A stretch of DNA of 64,000 bases from positions 1 to 64,000 of the forward strand of contig JAMOTK010000073.1 in NCBI GenBank assembly GCA_027062365.1. Direction: 5' to 3'. This DNA is from Sulfurovum sp. (GTDB lineage: Bacteria > Campylobacterota > Campylobacteria > Campylobacterales > Sulfurovaceae). A program made the position numbers and the translations under genes. Every line of letters begins with the position of its first letter. Positions within the stretch are counted from its first letter, which is position 1. The notes under the pieces are model-generated. The model had not been told where the DNA came from and ran no database searches. It saw only the letters and a list, made by a program, of their open reading frames with translations. Shown here piece by piece: positions 2,213-59,817 of this stretch.

Positions 2213-3094
2213 CTATTTCTTTTTAAACAAGTCATACTTTTTTCTTTTTTCCCACAAACTCTTTCTTGAAATACCCAATTTTTTAGAGAGTTCTGTGTCA
2301 GGGAACTTATATTGGAAGCTATTGACGATAAATTTTACATAATCATCAATCGTTAGTATCTCATTTCTATCATAAAGCTTTGAGTCGGTAGTGAGTGTAA
2401 TCGTTGGAAAGTCTGATTCTAAATTGGCTGTACTAGAGACGATAAAATCATACTTTGGTAGCAAGGCTAAGAGAAATTCTCTATCTATCTTTTTTAGCTC
2501 GTGTATTTCTGTAATATAGAGTAGGGTACTAGGACTACTTTTTTCTATCTTATTTTTCCAATTTTTATCGGTTAAAGGTATAAATGTAAGTAAAATATTA
2601 TTGGCTTGTGCATATTTAAACACAACTTTATCAACCAATCGCTGATAATTTGTCTCTATCACAAGAGGGGTTGTGATTTTATTTACATCAAAAGTGGTTT
2701 CGATATCATATAAAAGATTATCCATATACTCTTGATAGAGTATGGTTTGCTTTTTAAGTGTTTGGTACTCTTTGTAATGTTCTATCTTACGCATGAGGTC
2801 TTCAAGCATAAAAGGTTTGACAATATAATCTTTTGCACCTAGTCTAAGAGGCTCACCTACGGTATCATTATTAATATAATTGACCATTAAGATAATAATC
2901 TTCTCTTTAAATTTTGTGATAAGAGGGGAAGTGCTTTGTCCAGGTAAGTTAGTAGATAGTAGATAAACATCTCCATTGCTACCCATGGCTTCTTTTACCG
3001 AACTATACGTTTCTGTATCATATCCATGTTCATGTAATCTTGAAGCGATGCTTTGTGCGAGATAGAGTTCATTTTCTACAATGATTATTTTCAT
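2213..3094 (-). CDS. HP1021/Cj1608-type atypical orphan response regulator
   Basis: An N-terminal receiver-like domain (residues 1-115) is followed by a long middle region and a C-terminal helix-turn-helix (around T-E-L-S-K-K-L-G-I-S-R-K-S-L-W). In the receiver, the phosphate-accepting Asp is replaced by Ser47 (L-L-S-T-N-L-P-G), while the conserved Lys of D-Y-I-V-K-P-F is kept. The same Asp-to-Ser change marks HP1021 of Helicobacter, a phosphorylation-independent regulator that binds oriC and many promoters. HP1021 also uses cysteines as a redox switch; this copy has no cysteine at all. The start is taken at the ATG at 3094 because it overlaps the ispDF stop as ATGA, indicating translational coupling; an in-frame ATG at 3106 is the alternative. 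Likely roles are control of replication initiation and global transcription, by family inference. Confidence 0.85.
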   Translation of the reverse strand: MKIIIVENELYLAQSIASRLHEHGYDTETYSSVKEAMGSNGDVYLLSTNLPGQSTSPLITKFKEKIIILMVNYINNDTVGEPLRLGAKDYIVKPFMLEDLMRKIEHYKEYQTLKKQTILYQEYMDNLLYDIETTFDVNKITTPLVIETNYQRLVDKVVFKYAQANNILLTFIPLTDKNWKNKIEKSSPSTLLYITEIHELKKIDREFLLALLPKYDFIVSSTANLESDFPTITLTTDSKLYDRNEILTIDDYVKFIVNSFQYKFPDTELSKKLGISRKSLWEKRKKYDLFKKK

Positions 3095-4212
3095 ATTTTT
3101 TTCCAATTTGTATAAGTTAAATTTGCTATAGCATGTACGGTGACACCTTCTTTGCGTCCTACAAAGCCTAGCTTTTCAGCTGTGGTGGCTTTGATGTTTA
3201 CAAAATTTTTGCGTATGCCTAACAAGGAAGCGATGGTGGCTCTCATCTCTTCTTTGTAGGGCAGTAGTCTAGGGGATTGAGCCATGATAGTCATGTCAAT
3301 ATTGCCAATACTAAATCCATAGGCATTGATACGTTTTACAGTGTCACTAAGGAGTAATTTTGAATCTACTCCTGCATACGTATCTTCGCTATCAGGATAA
3401 AGCTCACCAATATCACCCATACTAGATGCACCCAAGAGGGCATCTATGAGTGCATGAATTGCCACATCGCCATCACTATGTGCTTTGAATCCATAGTCTA
3501 CATCGATGGGAACTCCTGCTAAGACCATCTTTTTGCCTTTTTCAAAAGGGTGTATATCTATCCCAAAGCCAGTAAGTGTCTTGGCTGAGGGGGCTTTGAG
3601 ACACACTATCTTGCTAAGGTCTTCTATGGTTGTGAGTTTATGGGCTTTGCATGAACCCTTTACAAAGTGTATGCTATCTCCTAAAGAGGCAATGGCTGAA
3701 GAGTCATCTGTAAAGATAGTGTGGGTTTGTAGGGCTTTTTTGAGACGTTTGGTAGAAGAGAGTTGGGGGGTTTGTATGATTTTGACCTGTTCTCTATCTA
3801 TGGGGCTATCTTTGAGATAGAGCGTATCGGTTACGCTAAGGATAGGTACAATACACGAAGCCTTTTTTTTGGCTTTGATGATACGTTTTATCATCTCTTT
3901 AGGGATACAGCAACGTGCTATATCAGAGACTAGTACATATTTAGATGTTACATTTTGTAAAGCATTATGTAAGGAAGCTTGTCTAGTACTGCCCCCTATA
4001 ACATAGGTATAAGAAGCAAAGTGTTTCATAACAGCTACTTCTTCAGCTGATGAGACAATAATAATTTCTTTGAAGTTAGCACTTTTTTCAAAATATTCTG
4101 CTACATAGAGCCATAAAGGGGTTTCATCGGTGTAAATCCATTGTTTTTTGACACTGCTCTTAAAGCGTGTAGAATTTCCTGCCCCAAGAAGTATTAAAGT
4201 AGTATTTGACAA
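3091..4212 (-). CDS. ispDF: Bifunctional 2-C-methyl-D-erythritol 4-phosphate cytidylyltransferase / MECDP synthase
   Basis: A fusion of two non-mevalonate isoprenoid enzymes. Residues 1-205 are IspD (L-L-G-A-G-N-S-T-R-F nucleotide loop, later V-S-D-I-A-R and Q-T-P-Q), making CDP-methylerythritol. Residues 215-373 are IspF (G-F-G-I-D-I-H-P-F with metal ligands, A-H-S-D-G-D-V, then the A-T-T-A-E-K-L-G-F signature), closing the 2,4-cyclodiphosphate ring. This fusion is usual in Campylobacterota. The start codon is TTG at 4212, preceded by GAGAGG; no better ATG is available. It leads the operon with the HP1021-type regulator, the sat-like gene and pgpA. The kinase of the intervening step, ispE, is at 56.9-57.6 kb in the same window. 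Confidence 0.95.
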   Translation of the reverse strand: MSNTTLILLGAGNSTRFKSSVKKQWIYTDETPLWLYVAEYFEKSANFKEIIIVSSAEEVAVMKHFASYTYVIGGSTRQASLHNALQNVTSKYVLVSDIARCCIPKEMIKRIIKAKKKASCIVPILSVTDTLYLKDSPIDREQVKIIQTPQLSSTKRLKKALQTHTIFTDDSSAIASLGDSIHFVKGSCKAHKLTTIEDLSKIVCLKAPSAKTLTGFGIDIHPFEKGKKMVLAGVPIDVDYGFKAHSDGDVAIHALIDALLGASSMGDIGELYPDSEDTYAGVDSKLLLSDTVKRINAYGFSIGNIDMTIMAQSPRLLPYKEEMRATIASLLGIRKNFVNIKATTAEKLGFVGRKEGVTVHAIANLTYTNWKKI

Positions 4213-53867: not shown

Positions 53868-54422
53868 ATGAAGTTTTTACTAGGGTTTTTATTGACTATT
53901 GTGTGTATGTTTGCTAGTGAAACAGACACAGTAGTGGTATTTGAAAAGCTGATTATCACATCAAGTAAAAGTGAAAAATCATTACAAGATTTAAAAATGT
54001 ATTGTTTAGAAAATCGTACGATAAGAACACTTCAAAAAAAACATCATTTTCGCCTATTATTAGAAAAGTTTGGGGAAGAGCGTATTCTTGTGATTAAACC
54101 GATAAAATCTAGGGATGTACGTAATACACTACTAATTTTATTGTCTTCTAAGTTTGAAAATATTTTTTATTTAAAATATGAAGAAAAAGTTTTACATAAA
54201 AGTGTAGTAAAAAACAATATAGAGATAAAAAAATCATCATGGATAACGATAATAGAATTACAGTGGCTTGCGTTGTTCTTATTGTCAATAATAGGCTTGA
54301 TTTTATCGATATACAGTAGAAAAAATATTGCAAAATTAGGGGAGAGTCAAGTGAATTTGAAACAAGAACAAAAGAAGATAGAAACAGATATTGATATATT
54401 GGGGAATGATGATGATTTATAG
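53868..54422 (+). CDS. Membrane protein with periplasmic SPOR-like domain, partner of the hybrid sensor
   Basis: A 184-residue protein: signal peptide (1-16), a periplasmic part of about 100 residues, one membrane helix (about 130-148) and a short cytoplasmic coiled coil. The periplasmic part ends in a pattern (R-I-L-V-I-K-P-I-K-S-R-D followed by a helix and F-E-N-I-F-Y) like the second half of SPOR domains, which bind bare glycan strands of peptidoglycan. The next gene starts within its last codons and has the same N-terminal layout, so the two look related and probably interact. No catalytic domain. SPOR assignment is by pattern only. Confidence 0.6.
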   Translation: MKFLLGFLLTIVCMFASETDTVVVFEKLIITSSKSEKSLQDLKMYCLENRTIRTLQKKHHFRLLLEKFGEERILVIKPIKSRDVRNTLLILLSSKFENIFYLKYEEKVLHKSVVKNNIEIKKSSWITIIELQWLALFLLSIIGLILSIYSRKNIAKLGESQVNLKQEQKKIETDIDILGNDDDL

Positions 54423-56871
54423 AGTATTATATACTATGTTACTATGGTCATTGATGTTTGTCTATACGAGTGCTATAGAAAACTTTATTGTCTTAGCGTA
54501 TGGAGAAAAAGAGATAGTAGAAAATCATCAGTTAACGTATGAGCTTATGAACTTGAAACCTTCTAAAGAATCAAGAATTATTAAAGTAGATACAAACTAT
54601 ATGTTAGAGATAGGACCTTATAAGCGTAGTGAAATATTGGCTTTAAGTTATATGCAACTAAAAAAAGTGTTTTCTGATGCTGTAATTATCGAAAAAAAAG
54701 TAGCAATAACCAAGAAAGAATCGAGTGTTCATAGGGTTAAAAAGGAAGTCTCTCCCTCCCTTAGCCCAAAAAAAGTTTATGTTATCAAAGAAACTAGTGT
54801 AGAACCGATAGATACTTCTTTATGGACAGCTCTTTTTGGTTTGGCACTCGTAGGGATATTGTTTATGTTTTTATCTTCTGATCAAATAAAACGGCTTAAG
54901 TCTGAGCATGAAAAAATAAAATCTAAGCACAAAAAATTAGAAGAGAGACAACATGAAGTACTCTCTAGTATGGGTGAAAATATCCATACTATTGCCAAAG
55001 AAGCGATGAATAGTACCTCTATCATTGCAGACAAAATTAAAAATACACGTTTGCATAAAGAGATGAAAAAAGTGATTCATAATGAAAATGAATTACTAGA
55101 TATTACCGATGATTTGATTAAATTTTTACGTTTAAAATCAAAAAAAGTAGTGATACAAAACGAAGTTTTTAATTTTAACCATGTACTCAATGAAGTGGCT
55201 GGACTATTACACTATACCTATAAACAAAATGACACCGAACTTATCTTTAATATTGATAAAAAAGTACCTAAATATATGTTGGCAGATTCATTGCAACTTG
55301 GACAAATCTTAACCAATATACTTGAATATCTTATCCAAAATAGTCAAAGTAAAGAGATTAAACTAGAAGTAAGTGTTCTTTCTAGTTTTAATGAATCCTT
55401 ACAGTTACAGTTTAATATTTTTACCGATATAGTGATAGAAAATAGTGATAGACTTTTTGATTCATATTATGATGAATCAGCACGACGTTATGTGGGATTG
55501 GGATTGTTTGTAGCACAAGAGTTAACCCATTTGATGAATGGAGAATTGGTTGTGATGGATGCCAAAGAGGGTAAAAACAGCATCATGCTAAGTTTGCCTA
55601 TCGAAGAAAAAAATAAAGAGAAAAGAAAATACCATTTACCCAATAAAGAGTTAGTTTCTAAAAAAATTCTAATCGTAGATACAAATAAAAATGCAGCATT
55701 AGCAAGTGAAAAACTTTTTGCTTATTTCAAAGCAAAAGTAACCATACTTAGCGTACAAAAATTTATTGCTCATCCTCCAAATTTTGCAGCCTATGATATT
55801 GTGGCTTTAAGCAATGGACTTTTTACCTATAAAATACTCTCTACTTTGGAAACACTTAAGGTGTCACAAGAGCTAAAAGTAATTAGTTTGGATAATCTTT
55901 TTACATCAGATACTATCTTTTTACATGATACTATAGATATTCGCCTCAAAAAACCTTTGACACAAGAATATGTGTTTGATACACTTATTGAACTGTATAA
56001 TCATAAAAAACCTAATGATGAGATACAAAATAAAACAGATAGGTTACTTGTTTATAGAGATAAGATTAAAGCTATCAAAAATATAGATTTAGAAAGCTTT
56101 AAAATTTTTAGAGGAAAACACCTTTTGATTGTTGAAGACAATATTATTAATCAAAAAGTTGTCTTGAGTGTATTGGCTAAATCGGGGATGATTTTGCATG
56201 TGGCTACCAATGGCAAGGAAGCCGTAGATTTTATACGTAGTAGTACGATGCCTATTTCTTTTATCTTCATGGATATTAATATGCCGATTATGGATGGTTA
56301 TAGAGCAACAGAACTGATACGTAGTGATGAACGATTTGTTAATGTACCTATTGTAGCACTGACTGCATTGGTCTCCGATCATGAGATAGAAAAAATGTTT
56401 GATATGGGTACAAATGCATATCTTCCTAAGCCTGTACGGATTGATACGCTCTATAGTGCCTTAAAAATGTTTTTAATTCCAGAGAATAGTGTTCCCTTAA
56501 AAAAAAACTTAATTGAGATAAAACCTATGGTCTTGGAAGGATTAAATATTAATTCAGGGTTAACCTATCTTAAAGGCAATGAGATGTTCTATAAGGAAGT
56601 ATTGAAAGAGTTTATGGATGCCTATAGTCAAAGTGATGAAGTTTTTGAACGTCTTGTCAAAGAGCAACGGTTTTCTCAAGTACAAATGTTGATTTTTGAT
56701 CTCAAAGGACTTACTGGAAGTATTGGTGCAAAAGAGATGTATGTTCTTATCAATGAGATATATCAACACCTTGTCTATAATAAACCAGAGTTACTCCATA
56801 GTTATGTCTCTCGTTATTATACCACCTTTAGTACTTTACGAAACTCTATTACCAAATATTTGGCTTCTTAA
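54412..56871 (+). CDS. Hybrid sensor histidine-kinase-like protein with degenerate kinase and HPt sites and one intact receiver
   Basis: About 819 residues: signal/anchor (1-20), periplasmic SPOR-like part (to about 85), Ser/Lys linker, membrane helix (about 140-160), coiled coil, kinase-like dimer helix, HATPase-like domain (about 260-395), a pseudo-receiver (about 415-530), a full receiver (about 568-690) and a C-terminal HPt-like domain (about 705-819). The receiver keeps E575/D576, D621, Thr and Lys. In contrast the H-box reads M187-G-E-N-I-H with Glu at the His place, the N-box has Tyr306 instead of Asn, no D-x-G-x-G box is seen, and the HPt motif is F762-D-L-K-G with Phe for His. It may be a non-catalytic scaffold. 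Start: ATG 54412 or 54409 after GGGGA. Confidence 0.8.
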   Translation: MIYRVLYTMLLWSLMFVYTSAIENFIVLAYGEKEIVENHQLTYELMNLKPSKESRIIKVDTNYMLEIGPYKRSEILALSYMQLKKVFSDAVIIEKKVAITKKESSVHRVKKEVSPSLSPKKVYVIKETSVEPIDTSLWTALFGLALVGILFMFLSSDQIKRLKSEHEKIKSKHKKLEERQHEVLSSMGENIHTIAKEAMNSTSIIADKIKNTRLHKEMKKVIHNENELLDITDDLIKFLRLKSKKVVIQNEVFNFNHVLNEVAGLLHYTYKQNDTELIFNIDKKVPKYMLADSLQLGQILTNILEYLIQNSQSKEIKLEVSVLSSFNESLQLQFNIFTDIVIENSDRLFDSYYDESARRYVGLGLFVAQELTHLMNGELVVMDAKEGKNSIMLSLPIEEKNKEKRKYHLPNKELVSKKILIVDTNKNAALASEKLFAYFKAKVTILSVQKFIAHPPNFAAYDIVALSNGLFTYKILSTLETLKVSQELKVISLDNLFTSDTIFLHDTIDIRLKKPLTQEYVFDTLIELYNHKKPNDEIQNKTDRLLVYRDKIKAIKNIDLESFKIFRGKHLLIVEDNIINQKVVLSVLAKSGMILHVATNGKEAVDFIRSSTMPISFIFMDINMPIMDGYRATELIRSDERFVNVPIVALTALVSDHEIEKMFDMGTNAYLPKPVRIDTLYSALKMFLIPENSVPLKKNLIEIKPMVLEGLNINSGLTYLKGNEMFYKEVLKEFMDAYSQSDEVFERLVKEQRFSQVQMLIFDLKGLTGSIGAKEMYVLINEIYQHLVYNKPELLHSYVSRYYTTFSTLRNSITKYLAS

Positions 56872-58527: not shown

Positions 58528-59817
58528 TTAATGAGAAGGTACAAAAATGATAATATCCCCTACCATAATAGGTGTCCATATAGGATGGCTATTGGCATTT
58601 TGAATATCGCTGCCAAAGCTAATTTCAAAGGCATTAGTAAATCCATCTCCATCCCAATCTTCGTTTGCATCAGATGCATTAAGAGGGTCTAATCCATTGG
58701 CTATTTCAAGAATATCAGAAATTCCATCATTATCATCATCACTATCAATAGAATTGTCTATCCCATCATTATCTGTATCTAAGAAAAGATACATTGCAAG
58801 GTAAGGTCTGTTTTCTGCAAAATACTCATGGTTATCAGAGTTAAATAGTGCTTGATAAGGATTGGAAATAGCCAGTGCTTTGGCTCCTGTTTGACCGTAT
58901 ACATAATCATCGGTATTTGCCACTATATTAAAATGAGCCATTTCATGGATAAGTGTACCTGATTGAGAGTCCGTCCCTGTAGTTGGGGCATACCAAAAAG
59001 AATTACATAGATAAATGACATAAGGACTATAGGGATAAACATAGGCATAATAATTGTCCGAACAGGTACAATCAAAGCGAATACTTTTTGTATCTAATGC
59101 TTCATAGATATTTTTAAAGTGTGTAGTCACGGTACTTTGGCGACTGCTACTAGCTACACCAAACCATGTACGGTATCTAGGGGCTGTTGTGTTTGCTACT
59201 GAGTTTTGCATTACTGTATAGGCATCTCTTGCAATTACAATAGATGCATCATGGGCAGTATTGAGTATATTTATTTGAGAACTACTACAGCCATTAAAAT
59301 TAGGAGATACTTTATAGCTTATATTTTTTGTACTTTTTTTTTGAGGTGTAAATCCAATCGTAATACTAGGTTGGCTATTTTTCTGCTCTACTTGTGTTCG
59401 CTTACTTTGCTCTAAAGACTTGATGTCTCCTTTGTAGCTAATCGTATAATTTGCTTCATCTTGCATCTGATAGTATCTAGGCATTTCTAGCGTGATACTC
59501 CGTGTTTCCCCCTCTTCAAAGAGTACATAATCAGAGTCTGTAGCTACAGAACGTTTGACAGTTCTTCCAAGATATGGTACGGTACGGTTACCCTCTTTAA
59601 CTTCAAAGATATTGGCAGATAATTGGCTCTCAAAAGGGGTATTCCAAAGTAAGATATGGCGTATTTCATTAGAATTATTGGTCAAAGTAATCGTAATACT
59701 AGCACTTTGAACATGTTCTTTTTTTTGTGTAAAGCTTAATTGGAGACTATGGTCTGCGTAAAGCCTAAGAGACAGTGTTAAAAGAGCGATGAAGACGATA
59801 TTAAATTGTTTTTTCAT
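58528..59817 (-). CDS. Secreted M35-like (deuterolysin/Lys-specific) metalloprotease with Ca-binding repeats
   Basis: A 429-residue protein: signal peptide (1-21), a beta-rich N-terminal part (about 25-135), a catalytic domain (about 165-345) and a C-terminal Asp-rich tail. The zinc site H291-E-M-A-H295 is followed by T302-D-D304-Y-V-Y-G308, the aspzincin pattern in which an Asp is the third ligand, and by Cys-rich loops. The tail holds D-x-D-x-D-G units (347-369, 387-393) of the calcium-binding thrombospondin-3/dockerin style. Enzymes of this family cut proteins outside the cell; it is best known in fungi but occurs in bacteria. Not part of an operon with truB in obvious function; the gap is 24 bases. 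Confidence 0.8.
   Translation of the reverse strand: MKKQFNIVFIALLTLSLRLYADHSLQLSFTQKKEHVQSASITITLTNNSNEIRHILLWNTPFESQLSANIFEVKEGNRTVPYLGRTVKRSVATDSDYVLFEEGETRSITLEMPRYYQMQDEANYTISYKGDIKSLEQSKRTQVEQKNSQPSITIGFTPQKKSTKNISYKVSPNFNGCSSSQINILNTAHDASIVIARDAYTVMQNSVANTTAPRYRTWFGVASSSRQSTVTTHFKNIYEALDTKSIRFDCTCSDNYYAYVYPYSPYVIYLCNSFWYAPTTGTDSQSGTLIHEMAHFNIVANTDDYVYGQTGAKALAISNPYQALFNSDNHEYFAENRPYLAMYLFLDTDNDGIDNSIDSDDDNDGISDILEIANGLDPLNASDANEDWDGDGFTNAFEISFGSDIQNANSHPIWTPIMVGDIIIFVPSH

What the first reader, a model, noticed from the sequence alone, without database searches (positions are those of the whole stretch)
53868..56871. Two-gene envelope signalling unit with a kinase that has lost its catalytic sites but kept a receiver
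The 819-residue hybrid protein has kinase, receiver and HPt architecture, but the H-box His is Glu189, the N-box Asn is Tyr306, the D-x-G-x-G box is missing and the HPt His is Phe762. Only the receiver (D621) and the G-L-G-L loop are intact. Both it and the overlapping upstream small protein carry a similar periplasmic SPOR-like segment, membrane helix and coiled coil. This suggests a peptidoglycan- or envelope-responsive complex in which the big protein is a scaffold phosphorylated by another kinase. Seen: residues and layout. Known: SPOR domains bind denuded glycan. Inferred: role and pairing.
Basis: partly seen in the sequence, partly recalled or inferred. Interest (0 to 1): 0.68.

Follow-up and report, generated by a model that had tools for sequence, protein, structure and literature searches.

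The report
Dead hybrid kinase with SPOR-like partner
A membrane signalling protein of Sulfurovum bacteria has lost every part needed to act as a kinase but has kept, under strong selection, the one part that accepts a phosphate from another protein, and it is encoded with a small look-alike of its own outer end, which suggests a sensor or scaffold read by some other kinase.

Summary
In the 819-residue protein the H-box His (Glu), N-box Asn (Tyr), DxGxG box and HPt His (Phe) are gone, and the second receiver is intact. These are not private defects. It belongs to a Campylobacterota family of pseudo-hybrid kinases: 74 aligned members lack the H-box His (64 have Glu there), while the receiver Asp is kept in 70 of 72. 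The H-box His was lost once (100/100 support); 4 early-branching members still have CA motifs and HPt His, so decay was stepwise. All domains remain under purifying selection, so this is not a decaying gene. The periplasmic part folds like SPOR (AlphaFold2; best PDB match CwlC SPOR, TM 0.75), and a relative with an intact kinase passes Pfam SPOR. But the Gln that contacts denuded glycan is absent in all 23 members, so peptidoglycan binding is unsupported. The small upstream gene is a homologue of the kinase's own N-terminal half and accompanies most family members with the SPOR-like part (about 29 of 35 loci), none of 33 without it. Most likely: a phospho-input receptor/scaffold whose receiver is charged by another kinase. 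New variant of the pseudo-histidine-kinase theme (RcsD, DivL, RetS).

The parts
53868..54422 (+). Small partner gene, 184 aa: signal peptide, SPOR-like periplasmic domain, one TM helix, cytoplasmic helix
   Evidence: ORF; homologue of the large protein's N-terminal half; AlphaFold2 model mean pLDDT 84
53943..54176 (+). SPOR-like domain of the small protein (beta-alpha-beta-beta-alpha-beta)
   Evidence: AlphaFold2 residues 26-103; Foldseek 1x60 rank 13, TM to target 0.66, the highest in the list shown; direct profile match to SPOR not significant
54264..54410 (+). TM helix and cytoplasmic helix of the small protein
   Evidence: AlphaFold2 helix 125-181; aligns with TM and signalling helix of the large protein
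54412..56871 (+). Pseudo-hybrid histidine kinase, 819 aa (ORF opens with TTG at 54391; likely start ATG 54412)
   Evidence: ORF and start region; 60+ homologues in Sulfurovaceae
54475..54699 (+). SPOR-like periplasmic domain of the large protein
   Evidence: AlphaFold2; best PDB match 1x60 CwlC SPOR, TM to target 0.75, rmsd 2.2; profile match to SPOR, E 1.4e-5, shuffled controls far below
54817..54879 (+). Transmembrane helix, running into a continuous cytoplasmic helix
   Evidence: AlphaFold2 helix 135-206 of the model; strongly conserved LWxALFGLAxIGILxLFLSSDQ
54952..55140 (+). Degenerate DHp domain; Glu codon 54976-54978 in place of the H-box His
   Evidence: Alignments
55153..55620 (+). 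Degenerate catalytic (HATPase_c) domain: N-box Tyr codon 55327-55329, no DxGxG, GLGL kept at 55495-55506
   Evidence: Pfam HATPase_c E 7.7e-7; alignments
55660..56025 (+). First, inactive receiver-like domain (no acceptor Asp)
   Evidence: Alignment; BarA model match spans it
56119..56475 (+). Intact receiver domain; acceptor Asp codon 56272-56274 (D621)
   Evidence: Pfam Response_reg E 1.4e-20; all key residues present and conserved
56578..56862 (+). Degenerate HPt domain; Phe codon 56695-56697 in place of the phospho-His
   Evidence: Alignment to intact HPt domains of L122, L116, L119 and L169

Best explanation
The unit is a membrane phospho-input receptor or scaffold, not a kinase. The large protein cannot phosphorylate itself or pass phosphate to its own HPt (shown at the level of residues). 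Its dimeric DHp/CA body and envelope domain are kept as structure, and its one intact receiver accepts phosphate from another kinase or phosphotransfer protein (inferred). The small protein is a copy of the large protein's sensor-TM-helix half without the kinase body; it most likely forms heterodimers or mixed oligomers with it through the shared TM and helix, setting its conformation (inferred). Receiver phosphorylation and envelope state would thus be read together, with output through binding to other proteins, possibly an intact kinase (inferred).
For: H-box His lost in all 74 aligned members (64 have Glu) while the receiver Asp stands in 70 of 72, Lys in 71 of 72, Thr/Ser in 71. The H-box His was lost once on the tree (100/100 support). 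All cytoplasmic domains are under purifying selection (dN/dS about 0.05-0.3), the receiver usually lowest, and identity of DHp and CA among these dead kinases is about that among intact ones. Four early-branching members (f16) keep the HPt His and CA motifs but not the H-box His, so the family passed through a form in which phosphate could hardly come from its own DHp. Small partner beside about 29 of 35 family members with the SPOR-like part and beside 0 of 33 without it, upstream or downstream. In genome G039 two pseudo-kinases and the small gene stand in one run of genes with an intact, receiver-less SBP_bac_3 kinase, next to an OmpR-type regulator and a REC-GGDEF protein. The host has 18 HisKA matches and a membrane-anchored orphan HPt with intact His as possible donors.
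Against: No donor kinase is encoded beside the unit in the window or in most relatives. The orphan HPt is genus-wide and is also present where the family is absent, so it does not mark a pair. A receiver can be conserved for reasons other than phosphorylation. The large gene's frame is broken in three Sulfurovum assemblies (G133, G070, G081) beside a small gene; assembly error or real loss.
Confidence: 0.55

Rival explanations
1. Phosphate sink or kinase inhibitor of the RetS type: it pairs with an intact BarA/GacS-like kinase or HPt and drains phosphate from it onto its own receiver, or blocks it, when the envelope signal is on.
For: Best whole-protein match is the BarA/GacS model (E 3.9e-56) and RetS is among solved-structure matches; [quoted passage not shown] A receiver without a working HPt behind it is a natural dead end for phosphate.
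Against: RetS keeps its DHp chemistry (own knowledge); here even that is gone. The large hybrid kinases of this genome (L127-L129) show no clear HPt in the alignment, so no clear GacS equivalent was found.
Confidence: 0.25
2. Inside-out signalling or recruitment: cytoplasmic phosphate on the receiver changes the dimer and so the SPOR-like domain, steering an envelope process.
For: DivL precedent of reversed information flow, whose authors suggest signals could pass to the periplasm through membrane-bound kinases (PMC4211667); SPOR-like fold outside, live receiver inside.
Against: No periplasmic partner is known; the SPOR-like domain evolves fastest; a sister group keeps the dead kinase without any SPOR-like part.
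Confidence: 0.12
3. Decaying kinase on its way to loss, with a receiver that has simply not yet decayed.
For: Broken frames in three assemblies; many genomes lack the family.
Against: One ancient loss shared by genera and families, with purifying selection on all domains since.
Confidence: 0.04

Closest known systems
BarA/GacS family hybrid kinases
   Same: Domain order TM-DHp-CA-REC-like-REC-HPt; best NCBIfam match
   Different: All kinase and HPt acceptor sites lost; single TM after a SPOR-like domain; score 190.7 against a cut-off of 890
RcsD
   Same: Membrane protein with an inactive kinase body that keeps one relay domain and serves an envelope pathway (PMC7418988; details of RcsD's lost residues from my own knowledge)
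   Different: RcsD keeps the HPt His and works with RcsC; here the receiver is kept and the HPt is dead, the mirror image. No IgaA/RcsF-like genes seen beside it
DivL
   Same: Pseudo-histidine kinase with the acceptor His replaced in a whole lineage and the fold kept (PMC4211667)
   Different: DivL keeps the other kinase boxes and binds a separate receiver protein (DivK~P); here the receiver is fused and the ATP-binding boxes are gone too
RetS
   Same: Hybrid relative of GacS that acts on another kinase, partly by taking its phosphate (PMC5992135)
   Different: Different sensor, no DHp His here; no GacS partner identified
SPOR domain proteins (FtsN, DamX, RlpA, CwlC)
   Same: Predicted fold; weak but significant profile match for the large protein
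   Different: Glycan-contacting Gln absent in all 23 members; domain sits on a signalling protein
Pseudo-HPt proteins (plant AHP6 type, from my own knowledge)
   Same: HPt fold with the phospho-His replaced
   Different: Here fused behind a live receiver in one membrane protein

Membership tests
Functional (hybrid) histidine kinase | Phospho-accepting His in the H-box | tested here: not met
Functional (hybrid) histidine kinase | N-box Asn and DxGxG box for ATP binding | tested here: not met
   Tyr313 and no DxGxG in the window protein; 26 of 74 relatives keep a strict DxGxG
Phosphorelay with working HPt | HPt His | tested here: not met
   Phe769; only 4 of 74 family members keep His, all from one genus
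Receiver domain | Acidic pair, acceptor Asp, Thr/Ser, Lys | tested here: met
   Pfam E 1.4e-20; E582 D583 D628 T658 K680 all present and conserved
SPOR domain | SPOR fold | tested here: met
   AlphaFold2 topology; top PDB match CwlC SPOR, TM 0.75, though Foldseek E only 4.8e-3
SPOR domain | Pfam PF05036 score over the gathering cut-off | tested here: not met
   No hit for either window protein, nor among the families shown for A1/A2 members; intact relative L169 passes narrowly, 21.4 against 21; hhalign E 1.4e-5 for the large protein
SPOR domain | Conserved glycan-contacting Gln on strand 1 | tested here: not met
   Val, Ile or Ala in 23 of 23; role of the Gln from PMC6895207
SPOR domain | Binding to denuded glycan strands | not testable with these tools
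   Needs a sacculus or oligosaccharide binding assay
RetS/RcsD-type accessory kinase | Physical partner kinase whose activity it alters | not testable with these tools
   No partner encoded beside it; only genome G039 has an intact kinase in the same gene run

The most novel reading that the evidence does not exclude
A two-protein envelope receptor in which information runs backwards: other kinases charge the receiver of a dead hybrid kinase, and its phosphorylation state, tuned by a kinase-less copy of its own sensor half, drives an envelope activity through a SPOR-like domain that has given up glycan binding.
Probability: 0.12. Interest if true: 0.82.

Novelty: new variant of a known kind. 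Interest (0 to 1): 0.58.

Why it matters
Pseudo-histidine kinases are known mostly as single well-studied proteins. Here is a whole inherited family in which the order of loss can be read from living relatives (H-box His first, with HPt His and the ATP-binding boxes still present in early branches), the receiver alone is spared, and a gene for a copy of the sensor half comes along. That gives a natural series for asking what a hybrid kinase is still good for once it cannot signal by itself, and whether receivers on dead kinases act as inputs, sinks or inside-out switches.

Tried and rejected
Decay as an explanation: rejected on dN/dS and on one shared ancient loss. A misaligned H-box: rejected, since intact relatives align without gaps and the His three residues on (ENIH) is not conserved. 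A direct Pfam search for SPOR in single sequences found nothing and the small protein alone gives no significant SPOR profile match; only structure and the large protein's profile do. Pairing with the orphan membrane HPt by co-occurrence: uninformative, as it is genus-wide and also in genomes without the family. Conserved neighbours as clues to function: each group sits at a fixed locus (group A between a fatty acid desaturase/smpB and ispE/truB; group C between bioB and topA; group B by ruvX), but these are housekeeping genes mostly in the opposite orientation and say nothing about the pathway. Literature: no paper found on a histidine kinase with a SPOR domain or on this family.

Full report
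What is there. The window is contig C73 of a Sulfurovum genome (the nearest named relatives are Sulfurovum sp.). A 184-aa gene (53868-54422) overlaps a gene whose likely start is ATG 54412 and which ends at 56871. Pfam sees only Response_reg and HATPase_c in the large protein; the best NCBIfam model is BarA, over residues 226-794 but far below its cut-off.

The residues. Aligned with intact hybrid kinases from the same genome and family, the large protein has Glu for the H-box His, Tyr for the N-box Asn, no DxGxG, a kept GLGL, a first receiver-like domain without acceptor Asp, a second receiver with all key residues, and an HPt with Phe for His.

Not a private defect. A protein search of 175 genomes of the family gave matches at E <= 1e-40 in 98 (some of these are ordinary hybrids). 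Of 85 full or near-full sequences aligned, 74 lack the H-box His (Glu in 64, Asp in 3, Gln in 2, others single) and 11 keep it; in the 74 the receiver Asp is present in 70 of 72 with letters there, and the HPt His in only 4. A tree of 53 sequences needs one loss of the H-box His, with 100/100 support for the split. A group from another family of the order (L168, L170, L171, L179) has lost the H-box His but kept the ATP-binding motifs and the HPt His, and L113 has kept the ATP-binding motifs only. A full-length relative, L169, with the same kind of N-terminal part has every site intact. The order of loss thus looks like H-box His first, then HPt His and the ATP-binding boxes; the rooting on the intact kinases is assumed.

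Still in use. Mean identity within groups in the dead DHp and CA domains is about that among intact kinases, and dN/dS is about 0.04-0.23 in TM-coil-DHp, 0.05-0.14 in CA and 0.01-0.13 in the receiver, against 0.2-0.5 in the SPOR-like domain, where dS is not saturated (simple Nei-Gojobori counts, several pairs near saturation).

The envelope part. AlphaFold2 gives both periplasmic domains the SPOR topology at high confidence. Foldseek's first PDB match for the large protein is the CwlC SPOR domain (1x60: TM to target 0.75, rmsd 2.2, probability 1.00, E 4.8e-3); for the small protein the same entry is rank 13 with the highest TM to target in the list (0.66). Foldseek E-values are weak and other ferredoxin-like folds follow, so the fold is SPOR-like rather than proven SPOR. 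A profile of the large protein's domain aligns full length with a SPOR profile built here from loci of genomes of the order (E 1.4e-5 for the pair, score 29.6; 60 column-shuffled controls reach 9.0), while the small protein's does not; the two align with each other at E 6.5e-11. Glycan recognition: Q270 of RlpA is highly conserved and binds the glycan (PMC6895207); at its place all 23 members have Val, Ile or Ala. Peptidoglycan sensing should therefore not be assumed.

The pair. Using BLAST and an HMM of the small protein, a small gene lies next to about 29 of 35 pseudo-kinase loci of the family that have a SPOR-like part and 0 of 33 that lack it (the totals are my count from those tables). 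Many of these small proteins are members of the HMM itself, the loci are best matches and not a random sample, and a few exceptions lie at contig ends or may be too divergent (L178 has one by eye). Gene order varies: upstream in groups A and C, downstream in genus g9 (L111, L112), between two pseudo-kinases in g7 (L100, L101). The own genome also has a second family member without SPOR-like part (C69:13639-15747).

How it may work. Shown: the protein lacks the residues for autophosphorylation and HPt transfer; the receiver is intact and conserved; the small protein is a copy of its sensor half. Inferred: the receiver is charged from outside, and the small protein associates through the shared TM and helix. 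The best contextual support is genome G039, where pseudo-kinase, small gene, second pseudo-kinase and an intact SBP_bac_3 kinase without receiver follow with short overlaps or gaps, beside an OmpR-type regulator and a REC-GGDEF protein. Rivals are a RetS-like phosphate sink and inside-out signalling.

What it is like. It is closest in logic to RcsD (dead kinase, one live relay domain, envelope), DivL (lineage-wide loss of the acceptor His) and RetS (hybrid acting on another kinase), and differs from each in which part stays alive. No paper on this family or on SPOR-bearing histidine kinases turned up in the library searched.

Noticed in passing
window 58531-59817 (-): Secreted M35 (Aspzincin) lysine-specific metallo-endopeptidase with a bacterial TSP3 repeat (Pfam E 1.8e-42).
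   Followed up: partly
window 2213-3106 (-): A response-regulator-like protein next to an IspDF fusion; the usual acceptor Asp region reads LLSTNLPG, so it may be a second phosphate-free receiver in this window.
   Followed up: no
L168:3238-4764 (+), also L170, L171, L179: A soluble 508-aa protein with HATPase_c (E 2.1e-15) and a receiver-like stretch but no DHp lies directly upstream of the early-branching pseudo-kinases: a different kind of split partner.
   Followed up: partly
L100:1967-11038 (-): Two pseudo-kinases, the small gene and an intact kinase with three SBP_bac_3 domains in one run of genes.
   Followed up: partly
G000:C70:10896-11375 (L213:5897-6379 +): Membrane-anchored orphan HPt with intact His, conserved through most of the genus.
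   Followed up: partly
L078:7139-9580, L079:5787-8247, G081:C13/C123: Orthologues of the large gene with broken frames beside a small gene; assembly error or real loss not decided.
   Followed up: no
L102:6256-8904 (+) and L121:1393-3831 (+): Two family members in genus g3 in which even the receiver acceptor site is changed.
   Followed up: no
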